Shown here piece by piece: positions 26,677 through 63,307 of a stretch of 64,000 nucleotides of DNA. The stretch comes from Telopea speciosissima (taxonomy: Eukaryota; Streptophyta; Magnoliopsida; Proteales; Proteaceae), in NCBI RefSeq assembly GCF_018873765.1, contig NC_057919.1, positions 63,006,484-63,070,483 on the forward strand, given 5' to 3'. The translations under genes were made by a program, and so were the position numbers. Below the pieces are notes generated by a model. The model ran no database searches and was not told the origin of the DNA. It worked only from the letters and a program-made list of their open reading frames with translations. Every line of letters begins with the position of its first letter. Position 1 is the stretch's first letter.

Positions 26677-26679
26677 TAG

Positions 26680-34311: not shown

Positions 34312-36533
34312 CTTCTCCATATTGGAGTTAAAAATAATAGTGGACATCAAATTAGATTCCCCTCATACAAGTAAGTGGTGAAATGAAAAGCAGAAAGAGC
34401 ATTTGAAGCTTGATATTAAAACATAGACAGAGTATGCATTCTTGGTGTATTTAATTACAGAAAAAAGAGTTAAAAAGCTCAAGCTAGTACCACAGGATTC
34501 AACCCAATGAATCCTACTCAAAGCAACTGATTGTTTGGGGATATGTTGCACTGAGTAAGTACTTGCTATTTGTTGGGTACTGTAAGTTTTTCTACTTCAG
34601 TGTCTATAACCCAATTTAGACAAAAAAGTGCTAAAACAGTAGCTACATTTTGCAAAATAAAATCTATAAAAAGCAAGCTTATTTACCCACTGGTTCAAGC
34701 TTTCGCTAGATCTCAGGTTAATTCGTAAAGCCTCCTGTCCAGTTATGAGCTCCAAAAGAAATATCCCAAAGCTGTAGACATCACTCATTTCAGAGAACAA
34801 TCTCAATTCTCCTTTCCTAAACAAGTACAGCCATAATTGATCAGAAAAAGATTGAAGAAGATCCAATGTAATAATACTTCATATAAAAAAAAAAACCATG
34901 AGTGACAGAAATGAAGATACTCTGGATCTTGGAAAACATTGCCAATCATTGGCCGGGACGAAGGACCTGCATCTTCAATTCTTTCAAGTAGCTCAAAAAC
35001 CCCTGCATCAGCAACTTTTGCAATGAAGTTTTCATCAACCAAGACATTAGCCGTTTTGAAGTTCTTGTGTACTAGAGGAGGTCTCAGACTATGCAAATGA
35101 CACAGACCTGCAAATTTACATTTGGTAGGAACTCATCATATCTTCAGTTAATCTCTTTCTTGGCAAGGTTGAAAGAATCCTCATCGATTTTGTCGGTATA
35201 TCTACCTTTAGCTGCTCCTAAGGCTATGGAAAGCCTTTGTTTGAACTCCAATTTTGTATTTGATCCTTGTCCAGTATCTGTTAAAAAGGAGTAATTAGAC
35301 AGGTATTCCATGCATGATAACAGTGAGAACCATTTTCAACAAATCGAGACTTACCATATAGATGACCACATACATTACCATTGGGCAGATATTCATAAAC
35401 TAACATTTGAGAGCCATCTTCCTGGCAGTAACCAAGAAGACTAGCAAGGTTTCGGTGCCGAATCTCCGACAGGTAGCATGCCTGTTTTTTACCATATGAC
35501 AATATCATATTTTATACAAAATCATTTGAGTTCTATTGTTCTTTCCAGAAAATATGGTTCATCTTTATTTAAGTTACTGACATGCTGTATTTAATTAGGC
35601 AACTAAAATGTAAGCAGCATCAAAATCGTTTAAGATGAATAGAGTCCAAAAGATCCTTTATTTAATTAGGCAATTAACATAAAGCCCTAAAGTTTTTTAA
35701 GATGAATCAACTCCAAATAATCCATTCTAATGGCATTCAGTATTGACCATGGTTTGAGGAAGCGGATCGGAATATGTGGAATCCACCAATTCAAATCGGC
35801 TAATTCATACTGGAATCTAGGTTTCTAGCTGAATCGGAATTGGCAACCGGGGAGGCCAACACCGTTGCCGATTCTGCTTACTTGAACCATGGTATTGACC
35901 TTTTCCTTCAGTAAGGCAATCATGAAAGCCCTAAGAACTCCTTCACTAACAAAGGCTTCAGATGGATCAACAGAAAAAGTAAGACCTTCCAACTTCCAAC
36001 TGATAAAGCAGACAATATAACAAAGTTAACAGTTAGGGATGTAAATAGTAATGTAATACCTCTTCTACAAATTCTTGCCTGGATGGACCTGGACGCCTTT
36101 TAACTGCTACAACAGTTCCATCACGTAGCAAACCTTTGTAGACTAAACCAAAACTACCATGTCCAATCACATTGTTTTCACTGAATTGCTTTGTTGCATC
36201 CTCCAACTCATCCAGCATGAATTGCTTCCCTTCCTGTGGTCCTGATATAGGGGGACCTCCCACTGAACTCGATCCAGCTTGCCTATTCCATTCCACTGTA
36301 ACCTCAGCAGGAGAGAAAGAATTATTACCAAACATGCATAGCTCTGAGGAATTCTACATGGCATTTCCAAATGAGGTCCTACCTAGTGTAGATGGGTCTG
36401 AAGAACCTGTCTCAGAATTCTTGTTTGAATTCTTACACTGCAACATGTAAAACCACACAAGCACAATAACAAGCAACACCAATGCAAGTCCTCCTGCAGC
36501 ACCTAAAACTATGGGTGCATATGACTTCGACAT
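34066..36533 (-). CDS. Membrane-anchored receptor-like pseudokinase (7 exons, 382 aa)
   Basis: Exons 36383-36533, 36060-36295, 35355-35481, 35206-35277, 34921-35107, 34687-34816 and 34066-34311 join in phase (1149 nt). The protein starts [15 protein letters not shown] and at once enters one hydrophobic helix ([16 protein letters not shown]), followed by a polar linker and a kinase domain. The glycine loop [11 protein letters not shown], lysine VAVKR and helix-C glutamate are present. The catalytic loop reads HKNFKTAN, not HRDLKxxN, and DFG is replaced by DAG. The C-terminus ends [15 protein letters not shown], which I recall as conserved in this plant RLK/RLCK group. There is no signal peptide or ectodomain. 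The missing catalytic Asp points to signalling without normal phosphotransfer. Upstream leader exons are not resolved. Confidence 0.88.
34687..34816 (-). CDS. Pseudokinase exon 6
   Basis: Encodes [20 protein letters not shown], the conserved SDVYSFG helix-F motif, and ends NQW|GTAAAT. Confidence 0.88.
34921..35107 (-). CDS. Pseudokinase exon 5 (degenerate catalytic loop)
   Basis: Contains [20 protein letters not shown] then [20 protein letters not shown]. Both normally invariant aspartate motifs (HRD, DFG) are altered here. Ends in phase 2. Confidence 0.88.
35206..35277 (-). CDS. Pseudokinase exon 4
   Basis: A 72-nt exon encoding [20 protein letters not shown] plus GAAK; flanked by AACAG and GTAGAT. 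Confidence 0.85.
35355..35481 (-). CDS. Pseudokinase exon 3
   Basis: Encodes [20 protein letters not shown] and [15 protein letters not shown]; donor TATATG|GTAAGT. Confidence 0.88.
35748..35891. mobile_element. hAT non-autonomous element, CATGG ends (144 bp)
   Basis: Left CATGGTTTGAGGAAGCGGAT and right, reverse-complemented, CATGGTTCAAGTAAGCAGAA. Perfect 8-bp target duplication GTATTGAC (35740-35747, 35892-35899). Interior motifs are GGATCGG and GAATCGG. It sits in the pseudokinase intron between exons 2 and 3. Confidence 0.92.
36060..36295 (-). CDS. Pseudokinase exon 2 (glycine loop and Lys)
   Basis: Starts after GTTACAG. Encodes [30 protein letters not shown] and VAVKR; ends GTAGAAGAG|GTATTA. 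Confidence 0.85.
36383..36533 (-). CDS. Pseudokinase exon 1 (membrane helix)
   Basis: ATG at 36533-36531, helix, and a Ser/Asn-rich juxtamembrane stretch to DPSTL; donor ACTAG|GTAGGA, phase 1. An acceptor-like CCTACCAG just before ATG suggests a 5' UTR intron. Confidence 0.8.
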
Positions 36534-38293
36534 CTGGTAGGAGCTCTCTACCTCCTTCCACAAACCTAAACATGGAATCTATAATCCAAGGCCACTGTAG
36601 ATACCCATTAGCAGAACTAAAGAAATTGAAGATCAGATTCATTAAGGAGAGAGAAAGAGAGAGTTAAGATTTCCTATTAAACATGAATGAATTGTCACTC
36701 TCAATTGAAGTCCCACTTGTGTACAATGTCATAAGAAGTACTCCTACCAGCTCAAGTGGGCTTTACAACAACTATCCAGAAAACCAAACTGGCTGATCTA
36801 AAACATCAACTGAAGACCAGATATTGTTGTACGGTTCAAATACCACTAAAGTCTAAACAAGAGTATCAGAAGACAACAATACTTCCCCCACCTTTGCTGT
36901 CCTTTTGAAAGCTGAAACCTCTTACACTGAAAAATATCAGAAAAGAACACAGACCATCCTTTCCATGAAGCAACTAAGAATTGACAACTCACTTATGGGG
37001 TTCTTGACAGCAGTTACCACCCTTTCTTGCCTTGTGTATGCACATCATCATGTGCTGTGAGTCAGCCAGCCATAAAGGCTAGAAGACCTGTATACTTGCA
37101 AAATCTGCTGGCCATGCCAGGGAGAAAAAAAACAGGTCAGAGTTACAAAATCAAAGTTTATAGAGATCCATTGACATGCAAATTAGATCAAAATTACTAC
37201 AACCAGGCTTTGCAAATTATTTTATTATTGAGATCCAAGTACACAGTAACTTGACAAGGGTAGTTGTTAGTTGTTACCAACCGTAAATGGTGCGATGGTT
37301 TTACTAGAAAGATGTGGACAGGGAAGAAAGTGACCATGATACTGCAACTGTAAGACATCATTATTGGAGGTGATGGCAAACACCCAAAAAAAGATCCAAA
37401 AATAAAAAAGGGAGTGTAATCAATCTTGGCTTTGAAATTTTTAAGTCCTATTCTTCTATTCACATGATCTTCCCTTTTTTGCCTTTATCTTGGTTTTGTG
37501 ATGTGGAAAGACTGAATTCCTGCTTCACTTCCCCATATGGGGTCATGACAGCAAAACAAAGACATATCACCTCAGCTAACTCCAAAGAACCCAGCTATCA
37601 TTTCCAGATGTATTTGGTTTTTCTTGAACAAAGAAGTAAGATTTATCTGTTCTTCTGCAGATTTGATACGTGGAATCAGTGCAGAGAATTGGATGGGGAT
37701 GTGATGACGAAATGGGTGGAGAGAGAAAGAGAGTGAGCTGTACTGTTTTGTTTTTCTTCTATCTCTCAAACCTGTAGCAGAAGAAGGGGATTGGTGGAAT
37801 AGAGGTCGTAAAGTTGCAGGTGCCGGAAGGAAAAGACCATATCCATGGTGGGCTGCGAAAAGATTAATAAAAAACAACTGTATATTCTTTGGAGCAGAGA
37901 GGCAGCAAGAATTTATTTGGATGTGTTGTCTGAAGATCAGACTGTGAAGCTGTAGAAGAAAGGATTTTTTTCTTTTTCCCAATTACACAGTACTTTTGTA
38001 TTCCACCATGGATCGAATTGTGAAAGAAAGACGGGCACCAAAAAAAAAAAAAAAACCCAGATCGAAGATCATAGCAATAGCATCTGCAGCAGCTCGAACA
38101 TAGTTGAAGCCAAGGCCCAAGGGAAGCGGTAAAAATTTTAAATGGGAATCTCTGCAATCGAAACATGTTCAAGACACGGCTATACAGGTTTCAGGTTTCA
38201 GTACACATGAATCACATGATGCACTAGACAGGTCTCAGTACACATGATGAAATCAATGGATTTATCTTCATTGGAAAAAAAAAAAAAAAGAAA
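36534..38293. other. Upstream region of the pseudokinase gene
   Basis: Probable promoter and 5' leader. GA-rich stretches near 36645 and 37718 and poly-A near 38041 are visible, but no confident TATA box, exon or element. Confidence 0.45.
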
Positions 38294-38679
38294 GGGTAAA
38301 TTACACGTCACCCCCTAGTTTTCAAACGAAACTTAAATCACCCCCCGGCTTTTTGAAAATACTCAAATCACCCCTTGTATTAGATCTCAATATGACAAAT
38401 TAGTCCCTATCGTTAGTTTTATGCTATTAAGTGATGATGTCAACCAGTCAAATAAATTTAAATCCTTAAACTACCCTTGACATTCAAACATAGATTTTGA
38501 AGGATAGTATTGTAAATTTAATTCTAATGTTTTAGTATAAGGGTAAAATAGTCCTCTCACACCAATAACTAACAGCAGACTAACACCGTTATTGTAGAGA
38601 GGGACGGATGAGTATTTTCATAAACCAGGGGATGATTTGAGTTTCGTTTGAAAACCAGGGGGTGACGTGTAATTTACCC
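38294..38679. mobile_element. MITE with ~70-bp terminal inverted repeats
   Basis: 386 bp. GGGTAAATTACACGTCACCC at the left and its exact inverse at the right; the arms continue through CAAACGAAAC and GAAAATACTCA with about 90% identity. The class may be Mutator-like judging by arm length. The A-rich flanks hide any target duplication. Confidence 0.88.
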
Positions 38680-40494
38680 CCCCAAAAAAAATAGTATACT
38701 AAATATAAAGTTACAAATTTAAGTAAGGAGATTGTTCTCTTTTCAGCTAGGGTCAAGGGAGAATCCCTTAATCGAGGGGTTTGGATGATGTGGAGAGGGT
38801 ATCGTGGAACAATGATGGATATTTTACTATTACCGCCTTCATAATATACGGGGCAGAGGATTTATGAAAATAGATGGATTGACTATTCCTTCTCCCAAGG
38901 GATAGGAACACTTTGAAAATCATTATATATTTATATGGAACAGTTTCATACATAGAAGGGCATTGAGATAATTTAATATGGAGAGAGAGAGAGAGAAGGG
39001 GATGCTAACATATCCTTCCTTCCTGTTCAAAGAACTTTTTTGCATGGACGTTTGTGTAGAGACCATGCGACCAAGAGATCTCTACTTGGTCGCATGGTCT
39101 CCACACAAGCGTCTAGGCCAATGGGAGAGCATGCCTGGATATCCACCAAGGGGTTGGAGGTGTCATTTCATGGTGCCTTATGAGAGAGCGTAGGAAACAC
39201 TACCAAGTAGAGATCTTTTCCCATCAAAAATTTTTTAGAATAAAACAAGAGGCAATCAAAAGAAGGTTACAACTTTTAAATTTGGTTACAACAATATATG
39301 ATGAGTTATTGCATTGGTTAGATCAAAAGAAAAAAGAACTGGGTCAATTGATTAAAAACCGTTAGATTTAGAAATGCCATGTGTCGTGTCACAAGACCCG
39401 TATTGCACTACACTTCGAGTTTAGAGAATTGGAGAGGATTTTTATCCCACTTACATAAGTGTATGATGGGTTAACAGAACAAAAAACTCTAAAACTCTCA
39501 ATATTGTGAATTCGTGGGTCCTTCCATGTCAATATTGTATAAACATTACATACTTTATAGCAAACTAACTTGACCAATTCAATCTGATCCGAGTTTTAAA
39601 ACAATGCATTCACGTCTGATATATCATTCAAATATGCTGATCCTTGATGTGTTTACCTAAGGATTCCTTAATCCTTTCAACATGTAAACACAAAGAATAT
39701 TATATTTGGAAATGAGACGGCATATTATATTTATTCATGAGATTGCCAAAACCTAAGAACAATCTCACATCCTTGGAAAAACGTGGAACACTGCCGCCGT
39801 CCCCTAGAAACCGTCCTCTCTTCCTCTCTTTCTCCTAGTGCTTGATCTTGGGGATAGTTTGGGGTTTTTGAGAACCGTAAAGTGTAGAGGAGTTGGCTTG
39901 ATCCAGTGGGAATGCAAAGTAGTGTGTGGAGTGTGGAACAATTGCGAAAGGGCTATATTCGATTGGAAGTTGTGCATCTTTAAAACTCAAGGTAACAATC
40001 AAAACCCTTCGTTGTTCTAGTGTTTGAATGACATCTCCCAACAATATTCTTGATCCTATATCGCTTCCGTAGATCGCTCACTGGTTACTTACAGAGCATT
40101 TAAAAAAATGGTTTTGTACTGAAATTGACCCAGTATCGGTATCGATATTTGTATCTGTGAGAATAAAACTAAAACCTTGGTCTTACTCCCACCTCCAATG
40201 GCCCATTATACAATCGGGACATCCGACGGACTCCAGGGAATTTATCTATTATCTTATGCTTTACTCATGGTTTTGGGTATCGATATCAGATTGTACATAT
40301 TCGTATCATATCGGTTGTTTGATATATCATATTGGTTGTATCGGAACAAGGGACTAAGGGAGGGTAAAACAGTAAGAAAAACCTAGCTATCGGTGTTTTG
40401 AGGGGCAAAATGGTCTGTTCCATATCAATGACCAACAAAAATAAGTGAAATAACCGAGACCAATATCTAAATTCATGGCTTTACCACCCTCACG
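38680..40494. other. Intergenic stretch with one hairpin
   Basis: Contains the hairpin at 39047-39113, a partial palindromic-MITE end near 39405-39445, and GATATC/TATCGG-rich patches near 40131-40345 that look like worn hAT-type MITEs. No gene recognised. Confidence 0.45.
39047..39113. repeat. Compact near-perfect hairpin (67 bp)
   Basis: GGAC... left arm (GTTTGTGTAGAGACCATGCG) pairs with the right arm (CGCATGGTCTCCACACAAGC) at nearly every base. The short centre itself includes AGATCT. Confidence 0.85.
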
Positions 40495-40746
40495 CATGGT
40501 TTTAGTGCACGGTATTGGAACGGGTATCGGCAACATGCAAAACCGATACGATACCGCTATGATATTGGCCTGGATCGGACAAAATTACCCTTAAATTTTT
40601 TTTAAAAAAATGAATTTTCTGACCATTTTACCCTTTGTCCGTACCATGTTACCGATACAGTATCGACACAGTATCAGTATCGTCAACTAATAAAACTGAT
40701 ACATATCGGGCGATACAATACCGATACTTAGAAGCTTAAAACCATG
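40495..40746. mobile_element. hAT non-autonomous element, CATGG ends (252 bp)
   Basis: Ends CATGGTTTTAGTGCACGG and, reverse-complemented, CATGGTTTTAAGCTTC. Flanks CCCTCACG (40487-40494) and CCCCCACG (40747-40754) form an 8-bp duplication with one mismatch. The interior is dominated by CGATAC/GTATCG motifs on both strands. Confidence 0.9.
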
Positions 40747-40754
40747 CCCCCACG

Positions 40755-41656: not shown

Positions 41657-41957
41657 TATCACCAACTTGTAGCCAAGACACCATATTACCAAATTGTTGC
41701 CATAACTATGATATTTTGGCAAATTGACCATGACAACCATATGACAATTTATCAATTTGAAGATTTAGCAATATGACGACATGGTGGCAATTTAATGATA
41801 TGAGTCATATGACATCACAACGATTTTTTCTACACGTCAATACAAATTGATACTAATCATGGACATAATGCTGTGACACCATGACTATACAGATTCAAAT
41901 TTTATCAATATTTTAGTTCTTTTTTTTTATTTGTATTGGCATCAAATGGGTACCAAC

Positions 41958-42233: not shown

Positions 42234-42241
42234 GCACCAAC

Positions 42242-46600: not shown

Positions 46601-49600
46601 ATGTCATGACATGCAAGATAGGGTTGATCCTAATAAATTAGAAACAGTGAACAATAATGAAACTATGAAAGCATCTTCAATAGAAAGAAAGGTCAAGCAT
46701 ATGAACCGTAAATTTCATGAGATTAAAGCATACGAGCTATAAATTTCATGAGACAAGTACTAGAAACCCTTCAACCCCCCCCCCCCCAAAACTTATTCAC
46801 AAGTCAAATATTATCAATTAAAAGAAAAGGCAATCCAAATGCTATTTCTACTCTGAAGTTAACTTTCAAATGCCTAAAAGCAATAAATAGATTCCTAATT
46901 CACAATGCACCCTGAGTGCTACACTTGTGGTATAATTGGATGATAAACATGGTTCAAGGTCTCGGCTTCGGACCTGGTTTTGGCCAGGCAGAAAACCGAG
47001 TCGGGCCGAGATCTCGGCGAGTTGGTGCTTCTTTTTTTTTTGGGAACTCGAAGCCAGGATTCAGTGGGTACTTGACCAAGTTAGGTCATGAAACTTGGTA
47101 TTCAGTCTATTTTGGGTTAAACACTATGGCACTATCAGATTTTGAAATATCAGTGTCCAAATAGGAGTTTGGCTTCGGACCCTAGCTTGGTAGGCTACGA
47201 CATACTAATAGGCCCTATTCTACACATAATTTAGCAGTAGAAAACATAGTTGTTTCCTTAACTTGTCCTCTATCTAGTCTCGGACCTTCAAACAAACAAG
47301 ATATCTCGAAGGTCTCGGCGAGAACTCGTTCCATGATGATAAATAACAATGGTTCAAATCTGTTGTCCCATCAAAAAGGAAAAAATAAAGGGTACAGCAA
47401 ATATGGATAAATTTAAAAATGCAAGTCCAAAGTAGTACTGACCATCCTTTAAAATCCCCTTGATGTGGTACTTACAACCAGCATAACAAGCAACAGATAT
47501 CAGTTTATTGACCTTAACCACCAATTTTAATAAGTAATAACATATATAAGATACACATATGACATATATATATATAGAAGGGGAGGATGGAAGAGTGTTG
47601 GTAAGGGATGAGGACATTGTGAGGAGATGGGATGAGTATATTTGTGAATTATTAATTGAAGATAGTGTAAGTTTGATTGAACCGGTTAATGGCATTATTC
47701 ATCAAGACAGCACACGTCGTAGATATGTGAAGGGTTGGTGTGGCGGAAGTTAAAGAAGCCTTAAGAAAAATGAAAGTAGGCAAGACACCAGGCCCAGAAA
47801 AGATCCCAATAAAAGTGTGGAAGGCCCTTGGAGTTTGTGGGGTATTTTGGTTGACCAAGTTATTTAACAAGATTATGATCACAAGGAAAATGCCAGATGA
47901 ATGGAGAAGAAGCATTGTAGTTCCGGTCTACAAAAATAAGGGTGATGTCCAGATCTGCAATAATTATAGAAGCATAAAACACGAGTAATACGATGAAACT
48001 TTAAGAGAAGGTTATTGAAGCCCATCTGAGAAGAAAGACTCATCTCGAAGAATAAATTTGGTTTTATGCTAGGTAGATCCACAACATAAGCTATCTACTC
48101 ACTAAGGAGGCTCATGGAAAGGTGTAGAGCTAGCAAGAAGGATCTCCATATGGTCTTTATTAACCTAAAGAAAGCCTATGACAGAGTCCTTAGAGATTTA
48201 ATCCAGCATGTTCTTGCGAAGAGACGGGTGTCGAGTAAATATTTAGATGTAATTAAAGATATATATAAGGGTGTGGTGACTAATGTGCGATCTGTGGGAG
48301 GCCAGGGCAAAAAGGTTACATCAATGATAAACCCTAAGCCCTTATTCGTTTGCGATTATCATGGATTAATTAACCAAAAACATCCAAGACGAGGTATCGT
48401 GGTGTATGCTCTTGGTGGATGAGACAAAAGTAAGGATTAATGCTAAGTTAGAGATGTGGAGATCAACCTTGGAAACAAGAAGCTTTAAGATTAATAGATC
48501 AAAGACGGAGTATATGATGTATAACTTTAGTCACACTATGATGGATAATGACACGGTGAAAATTGAGGGGAGAGAGAGATACTGCCAAGTGACTATTTTA
48601 GATATCTGGGGTCTACAATAAACAAAGAAGGTGGCATAGATGATGATGTTTCACAAAGAATTAAAGTGGGATGGGTGAAGTGGAGAGGGGCGACCAGAGT
48701 ACTGTATGACCGCCACATTCCTTTAAAACTTAAAGGAAATTTCTACAAGACTATTGTCCAACCATCTATGATGTATGGGGCGGAATGTTTGGCAGTTAAA
48801 AAGTGTCATATAGCGAAGCTATGTATGGCAGAGATCGTGGTTCGAGAACTCGCGAGATCTCGCCGAGTTTCTACGTTTTTCGAAATCCCAAGACGACACT
48901 GCCTATAAGTCTCAAAATGTCAATAACTCGCCGAGATCTCAACCGATCTCGGATCTCGATCGAGATCTCGGTTTGACCTAGAAAAATGCCCATTTAGGTC
49001 CTTTATATGAGTGCCAGATCTCGAGATCTTGCTGGAGTGCGAATGCTGTCAAAATCGCTTTGAATGAAAATATTTTTTTGGACATCAAAACAAATGAATA
49101 TTTTACCGCACTTTTGGTTTTTAGCAATGTTTTACCATATTAAGATTTATGGAATTTTTAGATTTGAGAAAAACCCCAGCATTAGAAAGTTGGAAATTGC
49201 TCCTACCGCCGAAAATCCAATTTTTGTTCTTGAACTGGGGGGTTGACTTTTTTTCCTTTGCATAAATAAATGTGTTTGTCTTGTGTCTGTCCTGGTTTCT
49301 AGCATAAGTGTCTGTCCTGCTCTCCCACTAAGTGAAACTCCTAATTGGACTTTGTTTTTGCAAAATCTGATAGTGTCATTGTGTTTAAATGGCCTAAAAT
49401 AGACTAAATACTAAGTTTCAGACCCAACCTAGGTCTAAAACCCACCGAGATAAGGTTTCGAGTCGGGAAAAAAAAAAAAAAGTGCACCAACTCGGCCAGA
49501 TCTCGACTCGACTCGACTCGGTTTTTCAAGGGTTCGAATTGACACCGAGACCCAAGTTTTCGAACCTTGGCAGAGATCATGGTATAAAATCTTGCGATAT

Positions 49601-52600
49601 TTCGACGATATATCGCCACATTTCGTATATCTCGACATGTCCGAGATACGAAACACATCCGAAACCAAAAAATACAATATCTCGTCGATATATCGTGAGA
49701 TATCGACGAAATATCGTGGATCTCACGATATATCGCGAGATATTGAAAAAGTGACAAATAGTGTGACACTAGGGGGCCATTTTATACCATATTTCGCAGC
49801 TCTTGGTCGAAATATCGACCGAGAGCTGCTGAAACTCTATTTTTCTCTCTTCTTCCTCATTTTTTGCTCTTCTTCCTCCCTTCCAAGCCTCATCCAAGCA
49901 TTGTTGAAGCTCCTTGTCGCCGGGAAGACGTCGAAGGGTCATCTAAGCTCATCATCCAAGCCTATTTTCATTATTTAAGGTAAATTCTATTTCTCTAAAA
50001 CTATTTTTTTTTAAAATACTTTGTACAAATGTTGTTGGATGTTGATGATATTAATATATGTTAGACACCGGAGGCCGATCTGACCTCACGGTGTCGAAAT
50101 TTTTTTCCCATATGTATTTTTTTTATTTTTTTTCTGGTTTTAAAAATTCATTTTCCTACAACTAAAATAGGAAATAATTAGGGGTAATATGACTTAGATG
50201 GTAATGAATCAAATATATGTTAGACACCAATGGCCGATCTACGGCTTCACAGTGTCGGATTTATTTTTTTGCTCTTAAATAATTCTTTTAATTTTCAGAA
50301 ATTAAGAAAAATATATAAAAAATTAAAAAAACAGAAATAAATAAGGAAAAATATGAGTTTTAAGTTTAAAAAATAATGAAAAAATATGAAAGTTATTTCT
50401 ATATGTTTTGAGATGCATTACATGTATATTATGTTTACTAATTTTTGGTTTTGTTGTGTTAGGTCAATACTTATATTAACATTATATATAAAAAATTGGT
50501 TTTAATTATGTGAAAAATATAAGGGTTAGGGGAAAAATATTAAATAACTATACAAGTGTATTAGTAATCTAAAAGTGTCAATTGAAGTGCATCTACATTA
50601 AGTTTTTTAATTATTTGTGTTACTTACATTGCAGTAAACAAGTATCATTATGGCGGATCATGATAGACAACGTACGAAGGGCAAGCAAAAGGTGGGGGAA
50701 AGTAGTTAACAAAGGGGGCAGAGGGAACAAAGAGAACAGAGGAAACAAGAGAGACCAGCCAGCCAGCATAGGGGTGACATTGCATGGTTACATGGTACTC
50801 CCATTGATGGGGATAAGAGAAAATCTATATGTAACTATTGTCACATGCAATTTATGGGAGGTAGGTCCAGTAGACTTAAACAACATCTGACTGGAGGATC
50901 TAAAGATGTTGTAGGTTGTCATATGGGCCCTACTGAAGTAGCCAGGGAGATTGGTGATAGTTTGAGGGGAAGAAAGAAGAGGAAGGCTGACAAGCAAAGG
51001 ATAAGAGAACAACTTGAGGATACAGTGAGGAGTTCGATGGGAGGAGGAAGACGATACAATGATGATGATGATGATGATGATGATGACATTGCGTGCACTG
51101 ATGACATACAAACAGCAGAGGAGGCTAGGGATTTTAGGCGATTGTTTCAAGAAGTAGAGTAAGTTTTCAAGATGATCAGCAGAGACAAAGAGTAGGGGTA
51201 GTGGAGGAGTGGCGATTCTGGAGGTCCTAGAACTTTGAATCCTTTTAAAAGATCACAAAGTGTGAGGCAGCCCCAACACCTCTACGATGCAGTACCACCA
51301 TCAACATCGATCCTAAATTGCATAAGAAGAAAGGAAGCGATCAACCCAGAATCAAAGGAGCATAGAAAGGGATGAAGGGATTGGTTAAAGAATCAATAGC
51401 TAAGTGGATGCTATACCATACTATCCCACCAAACACTGCACAAGGCCCCCATTATGATACCATGATAGATACCATTGCAGAGGCTGGCCCAGGATTCAAG
51501 GGCCCCACCCCATATGAGGTAATGAATGTTTATCTACCTCAACAAAAGAGTGAGATTGATGAGTACATTAGTGAGATGAGGAATATGTGGGAGACATATG
51601 GGGTGACTATAATGGCAGATGGATGGACTGGGCCTACAAGAAAGTCCATCATCAATTTCATGGTTTATTGTGATGGGAGGACAGTATTCCTCAAATCTGT
51701 GGATGCATCCAAAGAGATAAAGAATGCAAAATATATTTACAGATTGTTAAAGGAAGTAGTGGAAACAGAGGTAGGTATTGAGAATGTTGTCCAGATTGTA
51801 ACGGACAATGGAAGTAACTTAGTCGCCGGTGAGAAGATGATGAACAATAGTAAGTACCGGCTCTTCTGGACTCCTTGTGCAGCTCATTGCATTGACTTAA
51901 TGCTAAAAGATAGGAAAGTTAAAGTTGGTGAAGATTGTGGTTGAAAGTGCAAGACAAGTCACCAACTTTGTATACAACCACTCCTATGCACTCAATCTAT
52001 TGAGGGAAAAATGTGGGGGTGACTTGGTTAGGCCTGGCATCACAAGATTTGCCACCAACTACATTGCCCTCAAAAGCATTGAGACAAAGAAGGCCGGGCT
52101 GAGAAGCATGTTTGCTTCTGAGGAGTGGTTTGAATGGAAGGGTTCCAAGACTGCAAATGGGAGGAAAGCACAAGCAACGATGTCATCTGAGGACTTCTGG
52201 ACCAAACTAAGCAAAGTGGTGAAAGTTTTGGAGCCAGTAGTTAAAAGTTCTACATGTTGCTGACTCCGCTCTGAAGGGCCCAACCATGCCAGTCCTATAT
52301 GCTGCAATAGACTTGATGAAAGATAGTGTCTATAGTGTGGCTCCTCGCAGTAGCAAAAACTTCTTAGATATCATAAATGCTCGCTAGGAGAATCAACTTA
52401 TGCATCCACTGCATAAGGCTGGTGAGTAAATTTGTTTTATGTTTACTAATTCATAGTATTATTATTTACTAATTACCTATGCATTTGACAACACCTCTAT
52501 TCTATATGTCATATTTCAGCATACTACTTGAACCCTAAGTATCAATATAACAATAGGCTTGGGTTGGAAACTCAACTTATTGATCTTTGTAAAACAAGTA

Positions 52601-55452
52601 GTGAAGAAGTTGGAGCGGATGGTGACTACAAGCAATTTGCAACAATGAGGTGAGTTCATTTAGAAACTCAACTTATTGATGCTTTCAAATAAGTAGTGAA
52701 GAAGTACTTACTAATTTTCCACATGGGTGTAGATCAAGGTATTTAGGGATGCATTGGGAAGTTTTAGAAGCGAGGCTGCGTCTGAGCGAGCACGTGGTGA
52801 TCTTGGTAATTCTTTTAAGTTTTAAATTACATATGTATTGAAATTTGAAAGTTGAAAGTTGAAACAACATTTGACACATGTCTTTTTTGTTGTAAACTTG
52901 TAATGCAGCTGAATAGTGGGTGTTGTATGGGGAATCGGCTGAAAACTTAAGAAGAATAGCAATTAAAGTCCTCGCTCAAACATGTTCTCGCATCCGGTCA
53001 GTGAGAGGAACTGGAGTACCTTTGCACTCATCCACTCCAAGAGACGCAACAAATTGGGGTCTCAACGTTTATCCGACATGGTGTATATGCACTACAACTC
53101 GAGGCTGAAACCGCAACACATACGCATGGGACATGAGGGACAGAGGGGCACCATTGATCTAGCCGACATCTTTCAAGTTGACTCGGACGATGAGGACCCT
53201 ATGTGGATTGGGTGAGGATAGAGGTGAGCCAGTGTTGGATGAGGAGGGGAGGTAGGCCCGACCCCATGATAGCTTCCGAGATTGGTGCGATGTGGACGAG
53301 TATATGGGCGACGAGGGTCGGATACATCGAGGAAGCCTCACCCATACGATTCCACCCCACTGGTGCAATGCATGTTGCTGATGATGAAGACTGGTCTAAG
53401 TCCTCAAATGATGATGATGGTGATGATGGTGATGCTGGTGGTGGTGATGGTGATGGTGATGGTGATGGTGATGGTGATGGTGATGGTGATGGTGATGGTG
53501 ATGGTGATGCTGGTGGTGGTAATGCTGGTGGTGGTGATGCTGTGGTGGTGATCTGGTGAAGAATTTGACGCACGCGAGAGCGTTATGTGGTAGGCCAGGA
53601 GGCCCAGGATACGACACTGTAGAGCCACTCCGATTCACCTGGAGAGACACAGTTTGATCACGCCACACAAGATACGGACCACTGAGCACGTGCCCCGCAC
53701 TCCCACCTCAAGAGGCCCCTACATACATACAACAGAAGCGTAGGGGTCGACAAACACAGATTGCAACTCCGATCACATGGACATTGATAACCTATCTAGC
53801 TCTGTTGGTGGTTTGAGTATGGGTGATAGGGAGGGAGGACCGACTGGACATTGGCGTGCCCCATCTTTTGACGCACATACCACTCCATTGGCATCGGATT
53901 ATGGTGCATCACAACCTTACGGTGGATATGGATATGGATCATCATCATATGGGCGATTTAGTGGGGTAGGGGACTATGACTACGTCCCCAGTCCCAGGGA
54001 CATCTTGGATCATCTTTTGTAGATAACATCTTTGCATACCCTAGCGGATCTAACTACCAACCTCACGCTATACATGCAGCCAATGCCATCGCCTCTTGCG
54101 CGGCGCCAACATCATATCACAGTGGATCATCTTCTTCACGAACTGGATCGATTGGTAACCCTAGTTTATATCCTAGGATAGGTTACCTACAGTATGTTGA
54201 TGATTCCATTTACGTGACACTTGTGGATGACTACACTCGTTTCTTCTCCGATTCTATACCGTGGTCCACATATGTCCTTCAAACAGAGAGCAATGGATGT
54301 CGACTCCAGCGAGGCATGAGTGGGATTGATCCAGGGAGGCACAGCAACTACTATTAGCAGTTTAGCACTTGTAATTTGTAACTTAAGTTGTGATTTCATT
54401 GATCTATGAAATTGTGAGTTGTGACTTGCGAGTTGCGAGTCTTGTGACTTACTAACTTTGACACTTAGTGTATTGTCATTAAGGCTTTAAGCGAGTTATT
54501 GAATATTATGGAGTTTATGAGAATCATGGTACTCATCAATGTGTATTGGCTTTAACTTGATACGTGATGAAGTTAAATACTATTATTACATATTAACTGC
54601 CTAATTTATGTGTATTTAACTATTTATACATTAGGGTCGGCGACCGTATGTCAATCAAGGGTGCAAGCCCAAAACACCAATTTGAATTCACATTTTTACA
54701 ATTTTATGGTTTAAATGTGTTTATTAAGCTTAAATAAGGCTGTCCATGAAGTTTCAGGCCTAGATATGGCCAAATACCCCCCGAGATGGACCCCCGAAAT
54801 ATTGCAGAAAAAATGCAATATTTCGTTCATATTTCGCGATATTTCGGGTATCTCGGATATCTTGGTAGGCCCTAGATACCGAGATATCGCGAAATATTAA
54901 ACCTTGGCAGAGATGAGGATGCTAAGATGGATGTGTGGCAAAACTAGGAAGGATAAAGTGAATAACGAACGCATTAAAACTGATGTGGGAGTTGCTCCAA
55001 TCAATGACAAGCTCTGAGTATTTCGTCTGAGGTGGTTTGGCCATGTGCAACGGAGGCCTGGGGATGCCCCAGTAAGGAGGAGTGATCTGATCCAGATTGA
55101 AGGAGCTAAAAGAGCTAGGGGCCGGCCTAAAATGACAATAGGTGAGATTGTGAAGAATGACATGCATAGCCTGGGGCTTGTGTCACATATGACCTTGGAA
55201 TAGAGCCTATTGGAGGGCAAGGATCCACGTTGTCAATACCATGTAGCTGAAATTTTCCTATTTTTCTGGGCTAACCTCTTTCCTCTTACTTTCATTTTTC
55301 ATTTTCTATGTCTCACTTTTCTTATCTCAAATCTTCATTTTTATTCTTTTATTTCTCTTGCTTTCCTTTCCCTTTGTGAGGAGCTCAGTTTTCCATACTT
55401 TGTCTTGAAAGGATCCATGTAGCCGACCCCATTTAGTTGGGACAAGGCTGAG

Positions 55453-55490
<38 letters not shown>

Positions 55491-58400: not shown

Positions 58401-61400
58401 CAACCCGATAAGGGTTATTCCAACCCGGGTCTGCATTAATTTGACAGGATTTTGTTAACGAGACAATTTGCAGTCTATACTAGTTAACTTGTCAGAGCAT
58501 TTCTCTTGCCTCTTGGTTAATGTCATTGGCAACAAAAAGAGGACCATAACCTGGTGCAAGTTCAGCTTCTACAAGGTCTCAAGAGGGTGGACTGGAGTTG
58601 GTCCTAACCTTCAGCAACAACCCCCCCCCCCAATCAAATAACAGTGATTATAAACCACAAGATTGTAGACTACAGGTCCTTGCTACTACCATTTTCCCTA
58701 AAATATAGAGTGGAACCTCAATGATTGAGCAAAAAGACCATGAAACAGAAGGGCCAAAAGAAGATTTGGAAGCCACTTAAAACTAGATACAAGGCCATCT
58801 AAGCAACTCAGCACAGCAAATACACACACACACCACCAAAAAAAAACCACTATCAGAATGTCCACAAAGAGTAGTCAACCAGCATACAAACTGAATCATG
58901 CAGCAATAGATGGAAAACAGGAAAAACAGAAGCAGAAAACCTGTTGATTGCCGGGAGAAATGGCAAGGTAGTTTTGTGTATGCGCCAATCTCAGAAGCAT
59001 AGATTCAACACGATATTGTGAACCCCGAGAAAGAACTGAAAAGAAGTCAATGCCAAAGACACGGGCAAGCTCTGATGTGCGATTTATCTGTAAACCATCC
59101 CCCCCCCCCCCCACACACACACACACCCACCAAAAAAAATGTCAACATTTAATTTCAAAGGCAAACCCAAAAATAGGCCTTTTTACCACTAAACAATAAA
59201 TTAAAAGGTTACAACTACAAAGTACTTTTTTCTTATGAAGGAGAAGTTTATTAAGGGAGAGGGAATTAAAGGAGAACACAAGCCAAAAGATACAACAGCA
59301 AAAAGAAATCCCAAGAGAAATAACAAACAACACTGAGCTACAAAAAGAAAATCACGAAATTAAGATGAAAATAATTGAAAATTTTAAGAATCTATTAGGA
59401 AGGTCCTCTAGAGGATTAGGATTTACACGAATCAAGCTTTATCTTTCCCCAACAGAAGCAGGATTTACAATTTGACCAATAATTATTCTTATAAGGTTTG
59501 GTCACCTGAAAGACCCACTAAAGCAGCAGCAACCAGCAAGGAGTACGGTCGCACACATTGATGACCTTTTTAAGGAAAAAGACAAGGCCAAAAGAGAGAT
59601 GAATGGAGGTAATGAGAAAGTATTTGAAGATAAATGGACAGACAGAGGACGAATCACTGACAATGCAATTATGTTTCTTCTTTTTTTGCGAATCCACATA
59701 GTTAAGAGATGATGAGGGTGACAAACCATTCTGCAGCACCCATAAAATCTTCCACATAAATAAGGAAGTTAATAAGGGTGGATTCACATAATTACTAGGC
59801 CTTGGGACACCTTTGAAGTGGCAAAAGGATAGCATAGTTGCCATTTCAACTGTATCAGCATTACACAACAGGCAATTTTCTGGGAACTTTTATTCATTGT
59901 TTCCATCTTTCCAGTTCACAATCCCCTAAGCTTTGCCTTTTTATGAATTTAATATAACATCTAGAAATGAAAGAATTTTAAAGGAAGCTTGCTGGAATAT
60001 AAACATCACTAACAACAGAGGAAGATCCTGCCAAACATACCATATCAAGTTGATTCATAATCTCAAGGTTCAGCTTTGACCTCTCTATGACATATTCTAT
60101 ACATCGAAATCTTGCTCGACTAGGACCACTAGAAAACCATTGTGTCAATGTTCTGCAAGGGATTGATGGAATTTTTCGTCGCAGAACTGCTTCAGCCACA
60201 GATTCAAGAGTGTACATGTTAAGTTTAATTTCATCACGCATCAATCGCCAAATATTGAGGACAATTCTTCCACCAACATGGACACCACTAGCATGAGTGC
60301 GTCCCCATTCATCCTCAATTATCGTATTTTCTAAAATAGAATCACCAAACAAGGATTCAGGAAGCAGATTATCTGGCACAGATTTTTCACCATCTGATGA
60401 ATCTTTGGCTGCGATTTTGGTTTCCGGTAGGGGTGTCCGAGATATTTTATTCAGCAAACGCACACCAAGATGTGCAGCCCTTTCAGCTAAAAAGCCAAGT
60501 GAACCACCTTGTATTTCCCAACCCATCAAAATATCTGGATCTAATGAGACAATAATCTGCACAAAATGGTAAAATAACTGTTTCTCCTCGGAGGTAACTA
60601 GCACCTTGCAACCAGTTATTCCATCAGGATTTCTGCAAATGATACAATGAAACATTTAGAGAAAACAAGAAAACCATTCCTTCTCTAATAGACAGATCTT
60701 CTTCTATTGCCTATGTTTAAAAAAAATACTCCATTTTCCAGTTGTGCAAGACAATAGACAGGTAGCTACAGTATACCATTTCTTGTAAAAGGAAAAAGCA
60801 CTGCAGTCTGTGATACCTACATCAGCACTATGATTGATGTGTTCTAGTTGAATTCGCATTGCAAAGCATGTGGACAGGAGTCATTTGTGAATATGAAATA
60901 GAATGTGGAATTGATGCTTTAGAAAAATCTTAGATTACATCATTGCACCCTTGAAAAGACAAATGCATTGCCATCAAATTACTCAAATAAATAGATGGAA
61001 CAATGAATGCTTCTCTAATGTTAGTATACCTAACAAAACAAAGAAGTCAGTATAGAACTACTAGCGAATAACATAAAGACATAAAGACTCGTCAAGATTC
61101 AATATGATTAAAACCATCACCTTTGACATGATTCCCCATCATTACTATGCAACAGCACAAGAACATTAATGTCTACACAATTATCCTCCTGAACTGCAAG
61201 AACTATAACATTGACAGCATCTATTCGAGGATCAGGTCGAAGATTTCCTCTTGATTCTGCAAGAACCTGTTACACAAAGCTGCATTTGAATTAGAGCAAT
61301 GGAATAATTAATGAAAACATGAGGTATGGAGAATACTGATTTGAAAGTGATGTAGATTTGAAATTTCCTCTCTCAGGCATGCACACCTACAGAAGCATAC

Positions 61401-63307
61401 CCCTCCCCCAAATAGAACAAAAGAATGATAAAAAGAAAGAAATTTAAACAGTAATAACAGTCAGTAACTGAAGCAGCAAGTTAAGAGTATAAATTGCTAT
61501 CTGGTACCAATTGAATGTCTGGATGTTAATTCACAGCAAACAACAATTATATCGCATAGTATTAGTATCAGCGTTAATAGCATATCAATTATAAAAGGAT
61601 TATGAGATCCCATTTAGTTGGGATAAGACTATGATGTTGCTGATATTGTTGTTGTTAAGAGATCTTTCATAACAATATAGTTGTAATCATAGTTCGAAAG
61701 TTCGTCTCGTTTCGCCATTTCAGGCTGGTCGAAATTTCTGAAATTTCCGAAACATTCTGAAATTTCGGCGAAATATGGTATTTTTTGGGCCATATTTCGA
61801 CACTCCATATCGGTGGGTTTTTGGCCATATTAAGGCCTGATACTTCATGTACATCCTTATGTAAGCTAAATAAACACATTTAAACCTTCATATTGCAAAA
61901 AAATGAACTCAAAGTGGTATTTTGGGTTTGCACCCTTGATTGACAGTAGATCAGCCATTGGTGTCGTAACATACATTTAATTGATCCCCATCCAATTTAT
62001 ATTACCCCTAATTTTTCCTATTTTTGTTGTAGGAAAATCAATTTTGTAAATCAGAAAATTAAAAAAATAAGATACATATGAAAAAAAAAATTTGACACCG
62101 TGAGGTTGTAGATCAGCCTACGGTGTCTAACATATAATAATATCACCACCATCCAACAAGTATTGAACATAGTATTTTCAAAAAAAATAGTTTTAAAGAA
62201 GAAAAAAAATTACCTTAAACAGTGAAAAAGCCTTGACAAATGTGCTAGGAGGTGTTTCCAACGTGTTTCCAACGACGATCCATCGAAAATGATGAAGAAC
62301 AAGTTGGAAGAGGCTTGGAAGACAAAAAAAAATGAATAAAAGAGAATCTCTGCAAGGTCTCGGTCGAAATTTCGACCGAGATATGCGAGATTCTGCTTTT
62401 ATAGTCAAAGGTTAAAAAGTAGCGTGATGGGTTTGTAACATTTCAGCCATATTTCGGTGACATACCGAAATGTCACGAAATTTCGACGAAATTTTAACTT
62501 TTTTCATTTCGTAGGCCCATCTCGTCTCGGTAGTGTTGAGATTTTAGCGAAATTTTGAACCATGGTTGTAATTACACATCTTTCATAGAACACAAGAGGA
62601 ATTTGTTACAAAGTTTATCAAAACTCAAGTTGGAATGTTTATTTTACATTTTTCGCTTTTCCACAATTAATTTAGTATCTATATTTAGAAAGGAACAAGT
62701 TCTCACAATCATAAAACTCACAAATGATAAATAAATAAATATATATATATTAGAAATTTAATTAGAATTTGAACAAAATACATGATATAGAAGGTAATAT
62801 TCAGTGAAAATTTTCACCAGGGACTGGGCACGAGAATAATCCACCCACCCAAAAAAAAATAGAAAAAATAACATATTATTCTAAAAAACGATTAGTTCAA
62901 GAATCCTTAGATCACATATTTTATGTAGCACATATTCATATCCAGAAATTAAAATTAATAACAAGAAGTAGGATATTTTAATAGATTGAGAGACCAAGGA
63001 TATGCCCAAATTATCCATACTACTCAGTTGATACTTCACCAAAGATATATCTGATTCTAATGAATTTTAATCTTGGTGTGTGTTGGTTCAAAGTTACACT
63101 ATACCTCATTGACAATGTTTTAGAATTTATTGGCCACCCATACATTGATGATAAATTCATAGTTTGTAAAATAGGGACTATTTTTATATGTTTAACACAG
63201 TTTATTTCTTGTCAAAACTATCAGCATTGATCATAAAAGCGATGAACTTACTTCCCAGGTAATTACTTTATCATCAGTTCCTCTTGAGGCAACCTCTTTT
63301 ATAAAAA
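43456..63307 (-). CDS. REV3: DNA polymerase zeta catalytic subunit, C-terminal half
   Basis: Ten exons give about 870 residues of the B-family translesion polymerase REV3, ending at TGA 43458-43456. In order: the end of the N-terminal/exonuclease-like region, motif [16 protein letters not shown], the [10 protein letters not shown] fingers motif, motif C YGDTDS, thumb, and the C-terminal cysteine clusters ([18 protein letters not shown] and [17 protein letters not shown]). Those clusters hold a zinc site and the iron-sulphur/accessory-subunit binding module in the family. All catalytic motifs look intact and every junction from 61266 downstream is in phase. REV3 extends primers past DNA lesions in the nucleus, with REV7. 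The N-terminal half lies beyond position 64000. Introns are large; 46591-55545 alone holds a LINE and three hAT elements. Confidence 0.95.
43885..44499 (-). CDS. REV3: REV3 exon, thumb and first cysteine cluster
   Basis: 205 codons, [20 protein letters not shown] onward, with [20 protein letters not shown] and CIVCGEL...CDNC. Confidence 0.96.
45143..45446 (-). CDS. REV3: REV3 exon, palm/thumb
   Basis: Begins [20 protein letters not shown], then [20 protein letters not shown]; ends HQDISK at CTAAG|GTCAGA. Confidence 0.96.
45563..45768 (-). CDS. REV3: REV3 exon, motifs B and C
   Basis: Encodes [20 protein letters not shown] and ends in motif C YGDTD plus AG, whose serine codon is completed by the next exon (AG|C). 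Confidence 0.96.
46483..46590 (-). CDS. REV3: REV3 exon, fingers region
   Basis: 36 codons, [20 protein letters not shown] to PPQRVLFR, flanked by AACAG and GTAAAT. Separated from the motif A exon by an 8955-bp intron. Confidence 0.95.
46948..47335 (-). mobile_element. hAT non-autonomous element, GAGATCTC type (388 bp)
   Basis: Ends CATGGTTCAAGGTCTCGG and, reverse-complemented, CATGGAACGAGTTCTCG. Perfect 8-bp duplication ATGATAAA (46940-46947, 47336-47343). Its interior is homologous, in inverse orientation, to the right half of the element at 48836-49569, so it is a shorter relative. It lies in the 9-kb REV3 intron. Confidence 0.93.
48836..49569 (+). mobile_element. hAT non-autonomous element, GAGATCTC type (734 bp)
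   Basis: Starts CGTGGTTCGAGAACTCG and ends, reverse-complemented, CAAGGTTCGAAAACTTG. Flanked by GCAGAGAT (48828-48835 and 49570-49577). Subterminal DNA is packed with GAGATCTC, CGAGATCTCG and CTCGACTCG repeats. No transposase is encoded. An internal stretch (49036-49262) recurs at 229-458. Confidence 0.93.
50650..53215 (+). pseudogene. hAT transposase remnant (BED, DUF659, dimerisation)
   Basis: ATG 50650 opens a frame with one stop (TAA 50707) and a BED finger at ~50830-50925 (CNYC, then LKQHL...GC), continuing to 51162 with an Asp run. The DUF659/catalytic part is 51372-51944: [17 protein letters not shown] (first Asp), [14 protein letters not shown] (second Asp) and [12 protein letters not shown]. 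It shifts frame at ~51940 and goes on to 52263 ([13 protein letters not shown]). Sequence at 52980-53210 ([30 protein letters not shown]) is the hAT C-terminal dimerisation region. Some breaks near 51160-51370 and 52264-52980 may be introns rather than damage. Function today is unlikely but not excluded without cDNA. Confidence 0.85.
53216..54022 (+). pseudogene. Transposase C-terminal extension, Asp/Gly-rich
   Basis: Downstream of the dimerisation region, open frames encode an Asp/Gly tract from the hexamer GGTGAT (53409-53553) and a Gly/Tyr/Ser tail ([15 protein letters not shown], 53900-53960). Such acidic and GYG-rich tails occur in plant DUF659-type hAT proteins, as I recall. Continuity with the upstream frame is not proven. 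Confidence 0.5.
53409..53553. repeat. (GGTGAT)n and related trinucleotide repeat
   Basis: Long GATGGT/GGTGAT array with some GCTGGT units. It yields long Asp/Gly and, antisense, poly-His frames. Confidence 0.95.
55453..55515. repeat. (GT)n(TA)n tail of the RTE LINE
   Basis: About 16 GT units then TATATC/TA repeats, placed exactly where the related copy at 25420-25743 has its TTG-rich tail. It ends about 30 bp before the REV3 motif A exon. Confidence 0.9.
55546..55821 (-). CDS. REV3: REV3 exon, polymerase motif A
   Basis: 92 codons including [20 protein letters not shown] (catalytic Asp of motif A) and [13 protein letters not shown]; donor CCAAAG|GTATAT. Confidence 0.95.
55822..58940. other. 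REV3: REV3 intron
   Basis: No exon or element ends recognised. A segment at 57190-58020 with TTTAATTTATTTATTTAATA and other repeat-like features may be old LTR-derived sequence, but I found no paired LTRs. Confidence 0.5.
58941..59087 (-). CDS. REV3: REV3 exon
   Basis: 49 codons, [20 protein letters not shown] to [15 protein letters not shown], with AG and GT borders in phase 0. Confidence 0.95.
59088..60040. other. REV3: REV3 intron
   Basis: Contains a C12/(AC)n tract at about 59100-59126. Nothing else recognised. Confidence 0.55.
60041..60632 (-). CDS. REV3: REV3 exon, exonuclease-like region
   Basis: 592 nt. Contains [40 protein letters not shown] and [20 protein letters not shown]; ends at ATATG|GTATGT in phase 0. 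Confidence 0.95.
61121..61266 (-). CDS. REV3: REV3 exon, [11 protein letters not shown] block
   Basis: Encodes [20 protein letters not shown] and IVLAVQEDN, a conserved REV3 block; donor CAAAG|GTGATG, phase 2. Confidence 0.88.
61605..61655 (+). repeat. 3' tip of an RTE-type LINE
   Basis: CCCATTTAGTTGGGATAAG followed by ATGTTGCTG and TTGTTGTTG repeats matches the last ~50 bp of the LINE at 25420-25743. It ends about 25 bp left of the hAT duplication at 61680. Confidence 0.75.
61688..62564 (-). mobile_element. hAT non-autonomous element, GAAATTTC type (877 bp)
   Basis: Ends CATAGTTCGAAAGTTCG and, reverse-complemented, CATGGTTCAAAATTTCG. Perfect 8-bp duplication GTTGTAAT (61680-61687, 62565-62572). 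The interior is homologous in inverse orientation to parts of the 5.3-kb element, for example GACACCGTGAGG/GTGTCTAACATAT and GGGTTTGCACCCTTGATTGA, so it is a deletion derivative of a related autonomous copy. Subterminal motif CGAAATTTCG replaces CGATATATCG. Lies in a REV3 intron. Confidence 0.93.
62573..63251. other. REV3: REV3 intron
   Basis: AT-rich; no feature recognised. Confidence 0.5.
63252..63307 (-). CDS. REV3: REV3 exon (furthest upstream seen, tentative)
   Basis: TCTAG acceptor, then [18 protein letters not shown] and a GAA|GTAAGT donor in phase 0, which fits the phase-0 start of the next exon. Similarity to the matching REV3 segment before VxAESRGxLRPDPR is weak, so this may be a diverged or wrong exon. 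Confidence 0.45.

What the first reader, a model, noticed from the sequence alone, without database searches (positions are those of the whole stretch)
35748..62564. hAT group with shared tips but swapped subterminal palindromes
Six elements begin CATGG/CGTGG/CATAG-like and end with the inverse CCATG/CCTTG, each with an 8-bp target copy. Their repeated subterminal words differ in a patterned way: GAGATCTC (46948, 48836), GATATATC (49578), GAAATTTC (61688), CGATAC/GTATCG (40495) and CGGATC/GAATCGG (35748). Three of these share the form GA-NNNN-TC with a self-complementary core. In hAT elements subterminal repeats are transposase-binding sites, so the pattern suggests co-evolving lineages of binding motif on one terminal backbone. 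The sequences are seen directly; the binding role is inference.
Basis: partly seen in the sequence, partly recalled or inferred. Interest (0 to 1): 0.8.

Follow-up and report, generated by a model that had tools for sequence, protein, structure and literature searches.

The report
Jumping genes sharing one degenerate docking-site
Six jumping genes of the hAT kind in a plant genome carry clusters of short DNA words near their ends; the words look different but most are spellings of one short word, probably the docking site of the enzyme that moves them, with one or two letters that drift or are tuned from lineage to lineage.

Summary
In detail: six hAT elements with CATGG-like tips and 8-bp target copies. 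E5 carries BED and DUF659 domains.

The interpretation needs correcting. GAGATCTC, GATATATC and GAAATTTC are not swapped motifs but inverted pairs of one half-site, CGA-N-A-T, overlapping on AT (CGA-N-AT-N'-TCG). A one-gap word scan ranks CGANAT first in E5, E6 and five related elements. In lineage a only 9 of 22 such pairs are self-complementary, and N changes about as fast as its surroundings (25/72 against 159/506 mismatches) while C, A and A do not (4/72 each).

Lineage tuning exists at other levels: N is A/G/T in a, A/G in b and f, T/G in c; the last base is T in a, b, f but C in c; d and e use GGCG-type words. Word classes follow the transposase tree.

CGA-N-A matches published sites of DREF, ZBED1 and BEAF, so the BED finger is the likely reader. 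Binding is inferred, not tested. E1 and E3 are weak; E4's autonomous partner was not found.

The parts
35748..35891 (.). E1, 144-bp non-autonomous hAT-like element, words CGATTC/GAATCGG; word enrichment marginal
   Evidence: 8-bp target copy GTATTGAC on both sides; 9 genome matches including itself, one other full-length at 71%
40495..40746 (.). E2, 252-bp MITE-like element, half-site CGATAC (CGA-T-A-C)
   Evidence: Target copy 7 of 8; CGATAC 8 copies; 2035 first-look candidates, 40 scored, 46 matches, itself included
46948..47335 (.). E3, 388-bp element related to E4; weak words CGAGAC/CGAGAT
   Evidence: Target copy ATGATAAA; 77% over 182 bp to E4 in inverted sense
48836..49569 (.). E4, 734-bp non-autonomous element, half-site CGAGAT(C)
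   Evidence: Target copy GCAGAGAT; CGANAT sites 12, N = G in 11; 5018 first-look candidates, 40 scored
49578..54906 (+). E5, 5329-bp transposase-bearing hAT copy (frames broken), half-site CGA-N-AT with N = A/G/T
   Evidence: Target copy GCAGAGAT; zf-BED and DUF659; CGANAT 30 in terminal 500 bp, 5 in 4829 bp interior
50755..50955 (+). BED zinc finger of E5 with short flanks, likely reader of the half-site
   Evidence: Pfam PF02892 E 2.7e-05; row of alignment A1
51366..51944 (+). DUF659 part of E5 transposase
   Evidence: Pfam PF04937 E 1.9e-47
61688..62564 (.). E6, 877-bp non-autonomous element built of E5-type ends, half-site CGAAAT(T)
   Evidence: Target copy GTTGTAAT; 80% over 212 bp and 76% over 460 bp to E5
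48828..48835 (.). first copy of target GCAGAGAT, left of E4
49570..49577 (.). second copy of GCAGAGAT, between E4 and E5
54907..54914 (.). third copy of GCAGAGAT, right of E5; the joined flanks read on in one frame across the junction, LINE-like by eye

Best explanation
The subterminal words are arrays of one short half-site, CGA-N-A-Y, most likely bound by the BED zinc finger of the element's transposase. The fourth letter N is weakly read: within lineage a it drifts at about the background rate, C is almost never there, and lineages differ in which of A, G and T they carry. The sixth letter is T in lineages a, b and f and C in lineage c; with C the two half-sites can no longer overlap and the commonest facing pair becomes 12 bp. 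Steps shown: elements, target copies, half-site, letter frequencies, end location, tree. Steps inferred: protein binding, the BED finger as reader, and paired binding as in Hermes.
For: Scan of all 6-mers with one inner gap: CGANAT (or its complement) is listed first in E5, E6, L018, L025 (level with an overlapping word), L014 outer, L038 and L042, with z 9.8 to 14.9 against shuffle 95% levels of 6.1-6.9. CGANAC is first in E2, L015, L043, L044 and L045 and level with a poly-T word in L036. Letter counts at N given the full half-site, as A/C/G/T: lineage a (three copies) 34/2/25/33 of 94; b (three) 26/0/18/0 of 44; c (four) 0/0/34/68 of 102; f (L047) 8/0/9/0 of 17. With one element per lineage, 0 of 20000 permutations reach the difference (sites within an element are not independent). 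In lineage a, left end, mismatches at C,G,A,N,A,T are 4,13,4,25,4,8 of 72 each, against 159 of 506 outside; right end 2,4,0,8,0,0 of 36 each, against 22 of 546 outside. CGANAT ranks first among 23 and 13 comparable words for a variable fourth letter with fixed neighbours. Spacing: 22 facing pairs of total length 10 in a, 9 in b, 12 pairs of length 12 in c. Ends: 93 of 101 CGANAT sites in the terminal 500 bp of three copies; 20 random 10-kb regions, which themselves hold such elements, have 0.59 per 500 bp. Hairpin GGTCGANATNTCGACCGAGA with up to 2 mismatches: 1320 + 1321 hits against 9 + 4 for the reversed pattern. Tree: a, b, c, d and e each one side of a branch, 4 changes in all, shuffled mean 11.4. 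Published BED-protein sites share CGA-N-A: DREF TATCGATA and ZBED1 TGTCG(C/T)GA(C/T)A, BEAF CGATA. The Hermes BED crystal structure shows two BED domains on a quasi-palindromic subterminal repeat.
Against: No binding was measured. E4's best gapped word is CNAGAT, not CGANAT; its N is nearly fixed as G (11 of 12; L004 17 of 19), and no autonomous partner with G-only sites was found. CGANAT was second in L039 (z 6.7, level 6.8) and third in the inner L014 element (7.5, level 7.1). E1 has no CGANA(T/C) site. In lineages b and c, N is not more variable than its neighbours (b 7 of 52, with C at 9 of 48; c 5 of 201, with G at 27 of 201), so a free N is shown for lineage a only, from three copies. 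Lineage d carries CGATAT (4-5 sites per element) as well as GGCG-type words. L048 (f-like) has one CGACAT and one CGACAC. Copies within a lineage are relatives, not independent. Human ZBED1 and ZBED5 are reported to have clearly dissimilar motifs and hAT-derived CGGBPs mostly prefer CGG or CGC, so CGA-N-A is not a general BED site.
Confidence: 0.75

Rival explanations
1. One reading: discrete palindromic motifs (GAGATCTC, GATATATC, GAAATTTC), each bound by its own co-evolved transposase lineage on a shared terminal backbone.
For: E4 is almost all G (11 of 12) and E6 mostly A (13 of 17) at N; at one homologous hairpin lineage b is AATT at 10 of 10 distinct exact places and lineage a is AATT at 0 of 8.
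Against: Each lineage-a copy carries A, G and T at N, and the same hairpin reads TATT, AATA or TATA in that lineage; only 9 of 22 cores are self-complementary; lineages a, b and f (L046) share RLKQH next to the zinc histidine.
Confidence: 0.12
2. The words are by-products of slippage and internal duplication (satellite-like growth) with no binding role.
For: Lineage c has tandem CGATA runs with 5- and 10-bp periods; E4-family copies contain inverted internal duplications.
Against: Fixed positions are conserved while the inner letter changes in lineage a, although CpG is expected to decay fast (expectation recalled); sites occur in both orientations and at both ends and are rare in the interior.
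Confidence: 0.08
3. The sites serve a host factor (a BED-type or other regulator) or form an end hairpin, rather than the transposase.
For: A conserved hairpin containing the site is present more than a thousand times.
Against: Sites are present at both ends of full copies and in short elements without genes; known hAT subterminal repeats bind transposase.
Confidence: 0.05

Closest known systems
Hermes (hAT) subterminal repeats and BED domain, PMC10368747
   Same: BED finger, clustered subterminal repeats, two BED domains on a quasi-palindrome
   Different: Hermes site is AAGT/AAGC; here CGA-N-A-Y, and AAG(T/C) is not enriched; no Hermes chain among the hits of the sequence searches of solved structures
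Drosophila DREF, human ZBED1, Drosophila BEAF binding sites (PMC6179265, PMC2605929)
   Same: Sites read as CGA-N-A on each strand (TATCGATA; TGTCGCGACA as one spelling; CGATA)
   Different: Host proteins of animals, not transposon ends; the match covers four fixed bases only, and the finger residues were not compared by any search
Herves (hAT) motif C(G/A)ATTCAT, PMC3143072
   Same: Subterminal repeat shown to bind a hAT transposase; E1's CGATTC matches its first six letters
   Different: Mosquito element; no relation tested here
Maize Ac/Ds AAACGG repeats, PMC3260210
   Same: Plant hAT with short subterminal repeats shared by autonomous and non-autonomous copies
   Different: AAACGG occurs 0 times in the ends of E1-E6 and of four related copies
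CGGBP and hAT-derived BED proteins, PMC8097297
   Same: Related hAT BED proteins have diverging motifs; motifs of four hAT proteins match their own subterminal regions
   Different: Motifs mostly CGG/CGC or AT-rich; measured on arrays

Membership tests
hAT superfamily | 8-bp target site duplication | tested here: met
   Five of six window elements 8 of 8, E2 7 of 8; L018 and L025 elements 8 of 8
hAT superfamily | Short terminal inverted repeats | tested here: met
   Six elements, 8-10 of the outer 12 positions matched between tips
hAT superfamily | BED zinc finger in transposase | tested here: met
   E5 2.7e-05, L025 2.3e-05
hAT superfamily | DUF659 part and C-terminal hAT dimerisation domain | tested here: met
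   DUF659 1.5e-52 and Dimer_Tnp_hAT 1.6e-10 in two reading frames of L025; E5 has DUF659, but its two last pieces matched nothing
hAT superfamily | Subterminal repeats bound by transposase | tested here: inconclusive
   Repeats shown; binding is not testable with these tools
Hermes-type BED recognition | Same half-site AAG(T/C) | tested here: not met
   AAG(T/C) at about the count expected for equal base use, CGANA(T/C) far above it except in E1; it may still work like Hermes with another site
Maize Ac/Ds family | AAACGG subterminal repeat | tested here: not met
   0 copies in the ends of E1-E6, L018, L025, L038 and L036
Lineage c as source of E2 | E2 and the transposase-bearing copies share end sequence | tested here: inconclusive
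   Shared CGANAC half-site, but no blastn match between E2 and L036, L043, L044 or L045

The most novel reading that the evidence does not exclude
The BED finger has an old way of reading DNA, CGA-N-A, shared by plant hAT transposases and animal DREF, BEAF and ZBED1. In this genome a natural series of lineages shows how it retunes: residues next to the zinc histidine (RLKQH in a and b, RQKEH in three of four c copies) go with T or C at the sixth base, which also sets whether two sites overlap (10 bp) or abut (12 bp); and SS versus AT before the arginine goes with N = A/G/T or A/G.
Probability: 0.3. Interest if true: 0.65.

Novelty: new member of a known kind. Interest (0 to 1): 0.45.

Why it matters
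hAT transposases recognise their ends by subterminal repeats, but how these sites and the BED fingers change together is little known (my judgement). One plant genome here offers several related lineages, with more than a hundred scored copies each for a and b, whose half-sites differ at defined letters and whose fingers differ at few residues. That makes a BED recognition code directly testable. It also shows that palindromes which look like different motifs can be one degenerate half-site, a trap in sorting transposons by subterminal words.

Tried and rejected
Structure prediction of the L025 reading frame alone gave mean pLDDT 41.7 and was not used. Solved-structure searches with the L025 frame and with the BED alignment listed no BED protein. 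L017's candidate has no word occurring more than twice and is taken for chance, as is the seventh pair (18965-29792); both were left out of the motif counts. L004's and L015's elements come; L001-L003 were not used for motif counts. The search for an autonomous partner of E4 failed: of the transposases at 83-86% identity to lineage b, L047 and L048 have N mostly A/G, not G only; L046 has lost its left end, apparently to another insertion, and L048's BED finger was not reached. L026-L029 were found by DUF659 and carry a BED finger (Pfam scan of L026 and L028 only) but show no subterminal word cluster; they were left out of the motif counts and kept in the tree. L035 was left out of the tree. 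L035, L040, L041 and L042 were placed in their word groups by eye; the later scan bears this out. Right ends of lineages b, c, d, e and f were not read, so their target copies are untested. The c-lineage proteins were not scanned with Pfam.

Literature: in the listings I saw no paper on CGA-N-A-Y words at plant hAT ends; the library lacks most subscription journals. The Tag1 paper (PMC139161) was not held. For PMC10368747 I saw passages and section 7; for PMC8097297 the first of three parts; for PMC6179265, PMC2605929, PMC12795858, PMC3143072, PMC4763223, PMC3260210 and PMC13080361 passages only; PMC4890040 only in listings.

Full report
Observation. A search for CATGG-like tips, matching inverted tips and 8-bp target copies finds the six elements named plus one weak 10.8-kb pair. 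With a length limit of 6 kb the window gives 6 hits and 20 dinucleotide shuffles give 0 to 3, mean 0.5. E4 and E5 stand side by side as GCAGAGAT-E4-GCAGAGAT-E5-GCAGAGAT. The joined flanks read on in one frame across the junction, in what looks by eye like a LINE reverse transcriptase, so both look like insertions, one of them into the target copy of the other. The genome has 823 Mb in 1287 contigs; contigs C1 to C11 are 57 to 88 Mb long. Total size, number of large scaffolds and N50 fit those quoted for Telopea speciosissima, a Proteaceae (823 Mb, 11, 69 Mb); that identity is an inference.

What the elements are. E5 carries a BED finger and DUF659. A better-preserved relative, L025, has the target copy CCTGTGAC on both sides and BED, DUF659 and hAT dimerisation domains. 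So this is the hAT superfamily. E6 is made of E5-type ends (80% over 212 bp, 76% over 460 bp) and E3 is related to E4. E2 belongs to a repeated family (2035 first-look candidates, 40 scored), and E1 to a small one with 9 matches including itself. The six are therefore not six separate lineages.

The half-site. Counting what follows CGA in the outer 300 bp shows, in E5 and its relatives, a common A at position 5 (33 of 40 in E5), T or C at position 6 and a mixed position 4. A scan of all 6-mers with one inner gap, which assumes no motif, puts CGANAT first in E5, E6, L018, L025, the outer L014 element, L038 and L042, and CGANAC first or level in E2, L015, L036, L043, L044 and L045. It is not first in E4 (CNAGAT), the inner L014 element, L039, E1 or E3. 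GAGATCTC, GATATATC and GAAATTTC, with the C and G that flank them, are all CGA-N-AT-N'-TCG: two half-sites facing each other and sharing AT. In lineage a the cores are TATA 9, TATT 5, AATA 4, GATA 2 and TATC 2, so 13 of 22 are not self-complementary.

Which letters are free. In three copies of lineage a, aligned at the left end, mismatches at C,G,A,N,A,T are 4,13,4,25,4,8 of 72 each, against 159 of 506 outside the sites; at the right end 2,4,0,8,0,0 of 36 each, against 22 of 546. By columns, N varies at 12 of 23 and 4 of 12 sites, and CGANAT ranks first among 23 and 13 comparable words for this contrast. Pairs of three rows are not independent. In lineages b and c, N is not more variable than its neighbours (7 of 52; 5 of 201), so the free N is shown for a only. 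N is not wholly unread either: C is 2 of 94 in a, 0 of 44 in b and 0 of 102 in c; T is 0 of 44 in b and 0 of 17 in L047; A is 0 of 102 in c. With one element per lineage, no permutation of 20000 reaches the difference. At one homologous hairpin, the lineage-a loci with an exact match (8 of 19 on C1 and the first 41 Mb of C2) read TATT 6, AATA 1 and TATA 1; the lineage-b loci with a match (11 of 21, 10 distinct hairpins) all read AATT; one of three loci at 83-86% has a match and reads GATT. One search lists only the first 100 of its 2641 rows, 75 distinct places, and those are exact matches.

Lineages. Twenty DUF659 loci were picked from the rows before their words were seen. Sixteen have word clusters: four CGATAC/CGAGAC (c), three CGAAAT/CGAGAT (b), four CGCCATGG (d), five CGCCTTGG (e); four have none. 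The tree holds 22 rows: 15 of these 16 (L035 left out), the four without words, and three of lineage a. Each of the five groups is one side of a branch (support 100/99 for a and c, 93/94 for b and d, 88/87 for e), with a and b sisters and c next to them. L046, L047 and L048 come from loci at 83-86% identity to b; L047 and L048 show N mostly A or G, L046 gave no end. Residues before the zinc histidine are SS-RLKQH in a; AT-RLKQH in b and in L046, and ATRL up to the end of the stretch in L047; VT-RQKEH in c (L044 has W for R); IK-RLKQH in d and e except L037 (IK-RIKQ, with N in place of the histidine). In Hermes the base contacts come from residues 63-70, just before the zinc ligand H71; the matching of residues is by eye. 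The number of contrasts is small, so a code is a proposal.

How it most likely works. Transposase multimers with several BED fingers bind arrays of half-sites in the outer few hundred base pairs of each end; inverted neighbours allow two fingers to sit together, as in the Hermes crystal structure. Sites crowd the ends (93 of 101 in three copies) and are rare elsewhere (0.59 per 500 bp in random regions). Non-autonomous copies keep the sites and so could be moved. CGA-N-A is also the published site of animal BED-finger proteins: TATCGATA for DREF and TGTCG(C/T)GA(C/T)A for ZBED1, CGATA for BEAF (that BEAF has a BED finger is recalled, in line with the title of Aravind 2000 in the reference list seen). 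The four shared bases could be chance, and other BED proteins differ: ZBED1 and ZBED5 motifs are called clearly dissimilar, and hAT-derived CGGBPs mostly prefer CGG or CGC. The Herves motif CGATTCAT resembles E1's CGATTC.

Verdict. The sequence observation is right and more than chance for the elements and for four of the six word sets. The reading as swapped palindromes is mostly wrong for the three GA-NNNN-TC words, yet the wider idea that binding words differ by transposase lineage is supported at the level of the sixth base, the N preference and the GGCG-type words of d and e. The families appear new, but of a known kind; no transposon library was searched for their names.

Noticed in passing
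48828-54914: Two hAT elements, E4 and E5, lie side by side sharing one 8-bp target in three copies, inside what looks like a LINE copy; the second insertion seems to have re-used exactly the same 8 bp.
   Followed up: partly
L030, L033, L034, L041 and L031, L032, L035, L037, L040: Two sister hAT lineages with tips CATAGTTGTCATG(G/A) and CATAGTT(A/G)TCAAGGCG and inner words CGCCATGG and CGCCTTGG: a second case of a shared half-site (GGCG) with a changed core; d elements also carry CGATAT.
   Followed up: partly
L014 972-1656 with 1226-1488 inside: A CATAG-tipped element with CGAAAT words nested inside another one with CATAG/CATGG tips, each with a perfect 8-bp target copy.
   Followed up: no
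window 50060-50260; L046, L048, E6 (61688-62564): A stretch of the form (G)ACACC...GGTGTC between the left end and the transposase gene, twice in E5 and in L048, seen at least once in L046 and E6.
   Followed up: no
L026, L027, L028, L029: Long open genes with BED and DUF659 parts but no subterminal word cluster; may be domesticated hAT genes or other families.
   Followed up: no
G000 C1:4105297-4105838 and similar places: Some E2-family copies occur as closely spaced inverted pairs.
   Followed up: no
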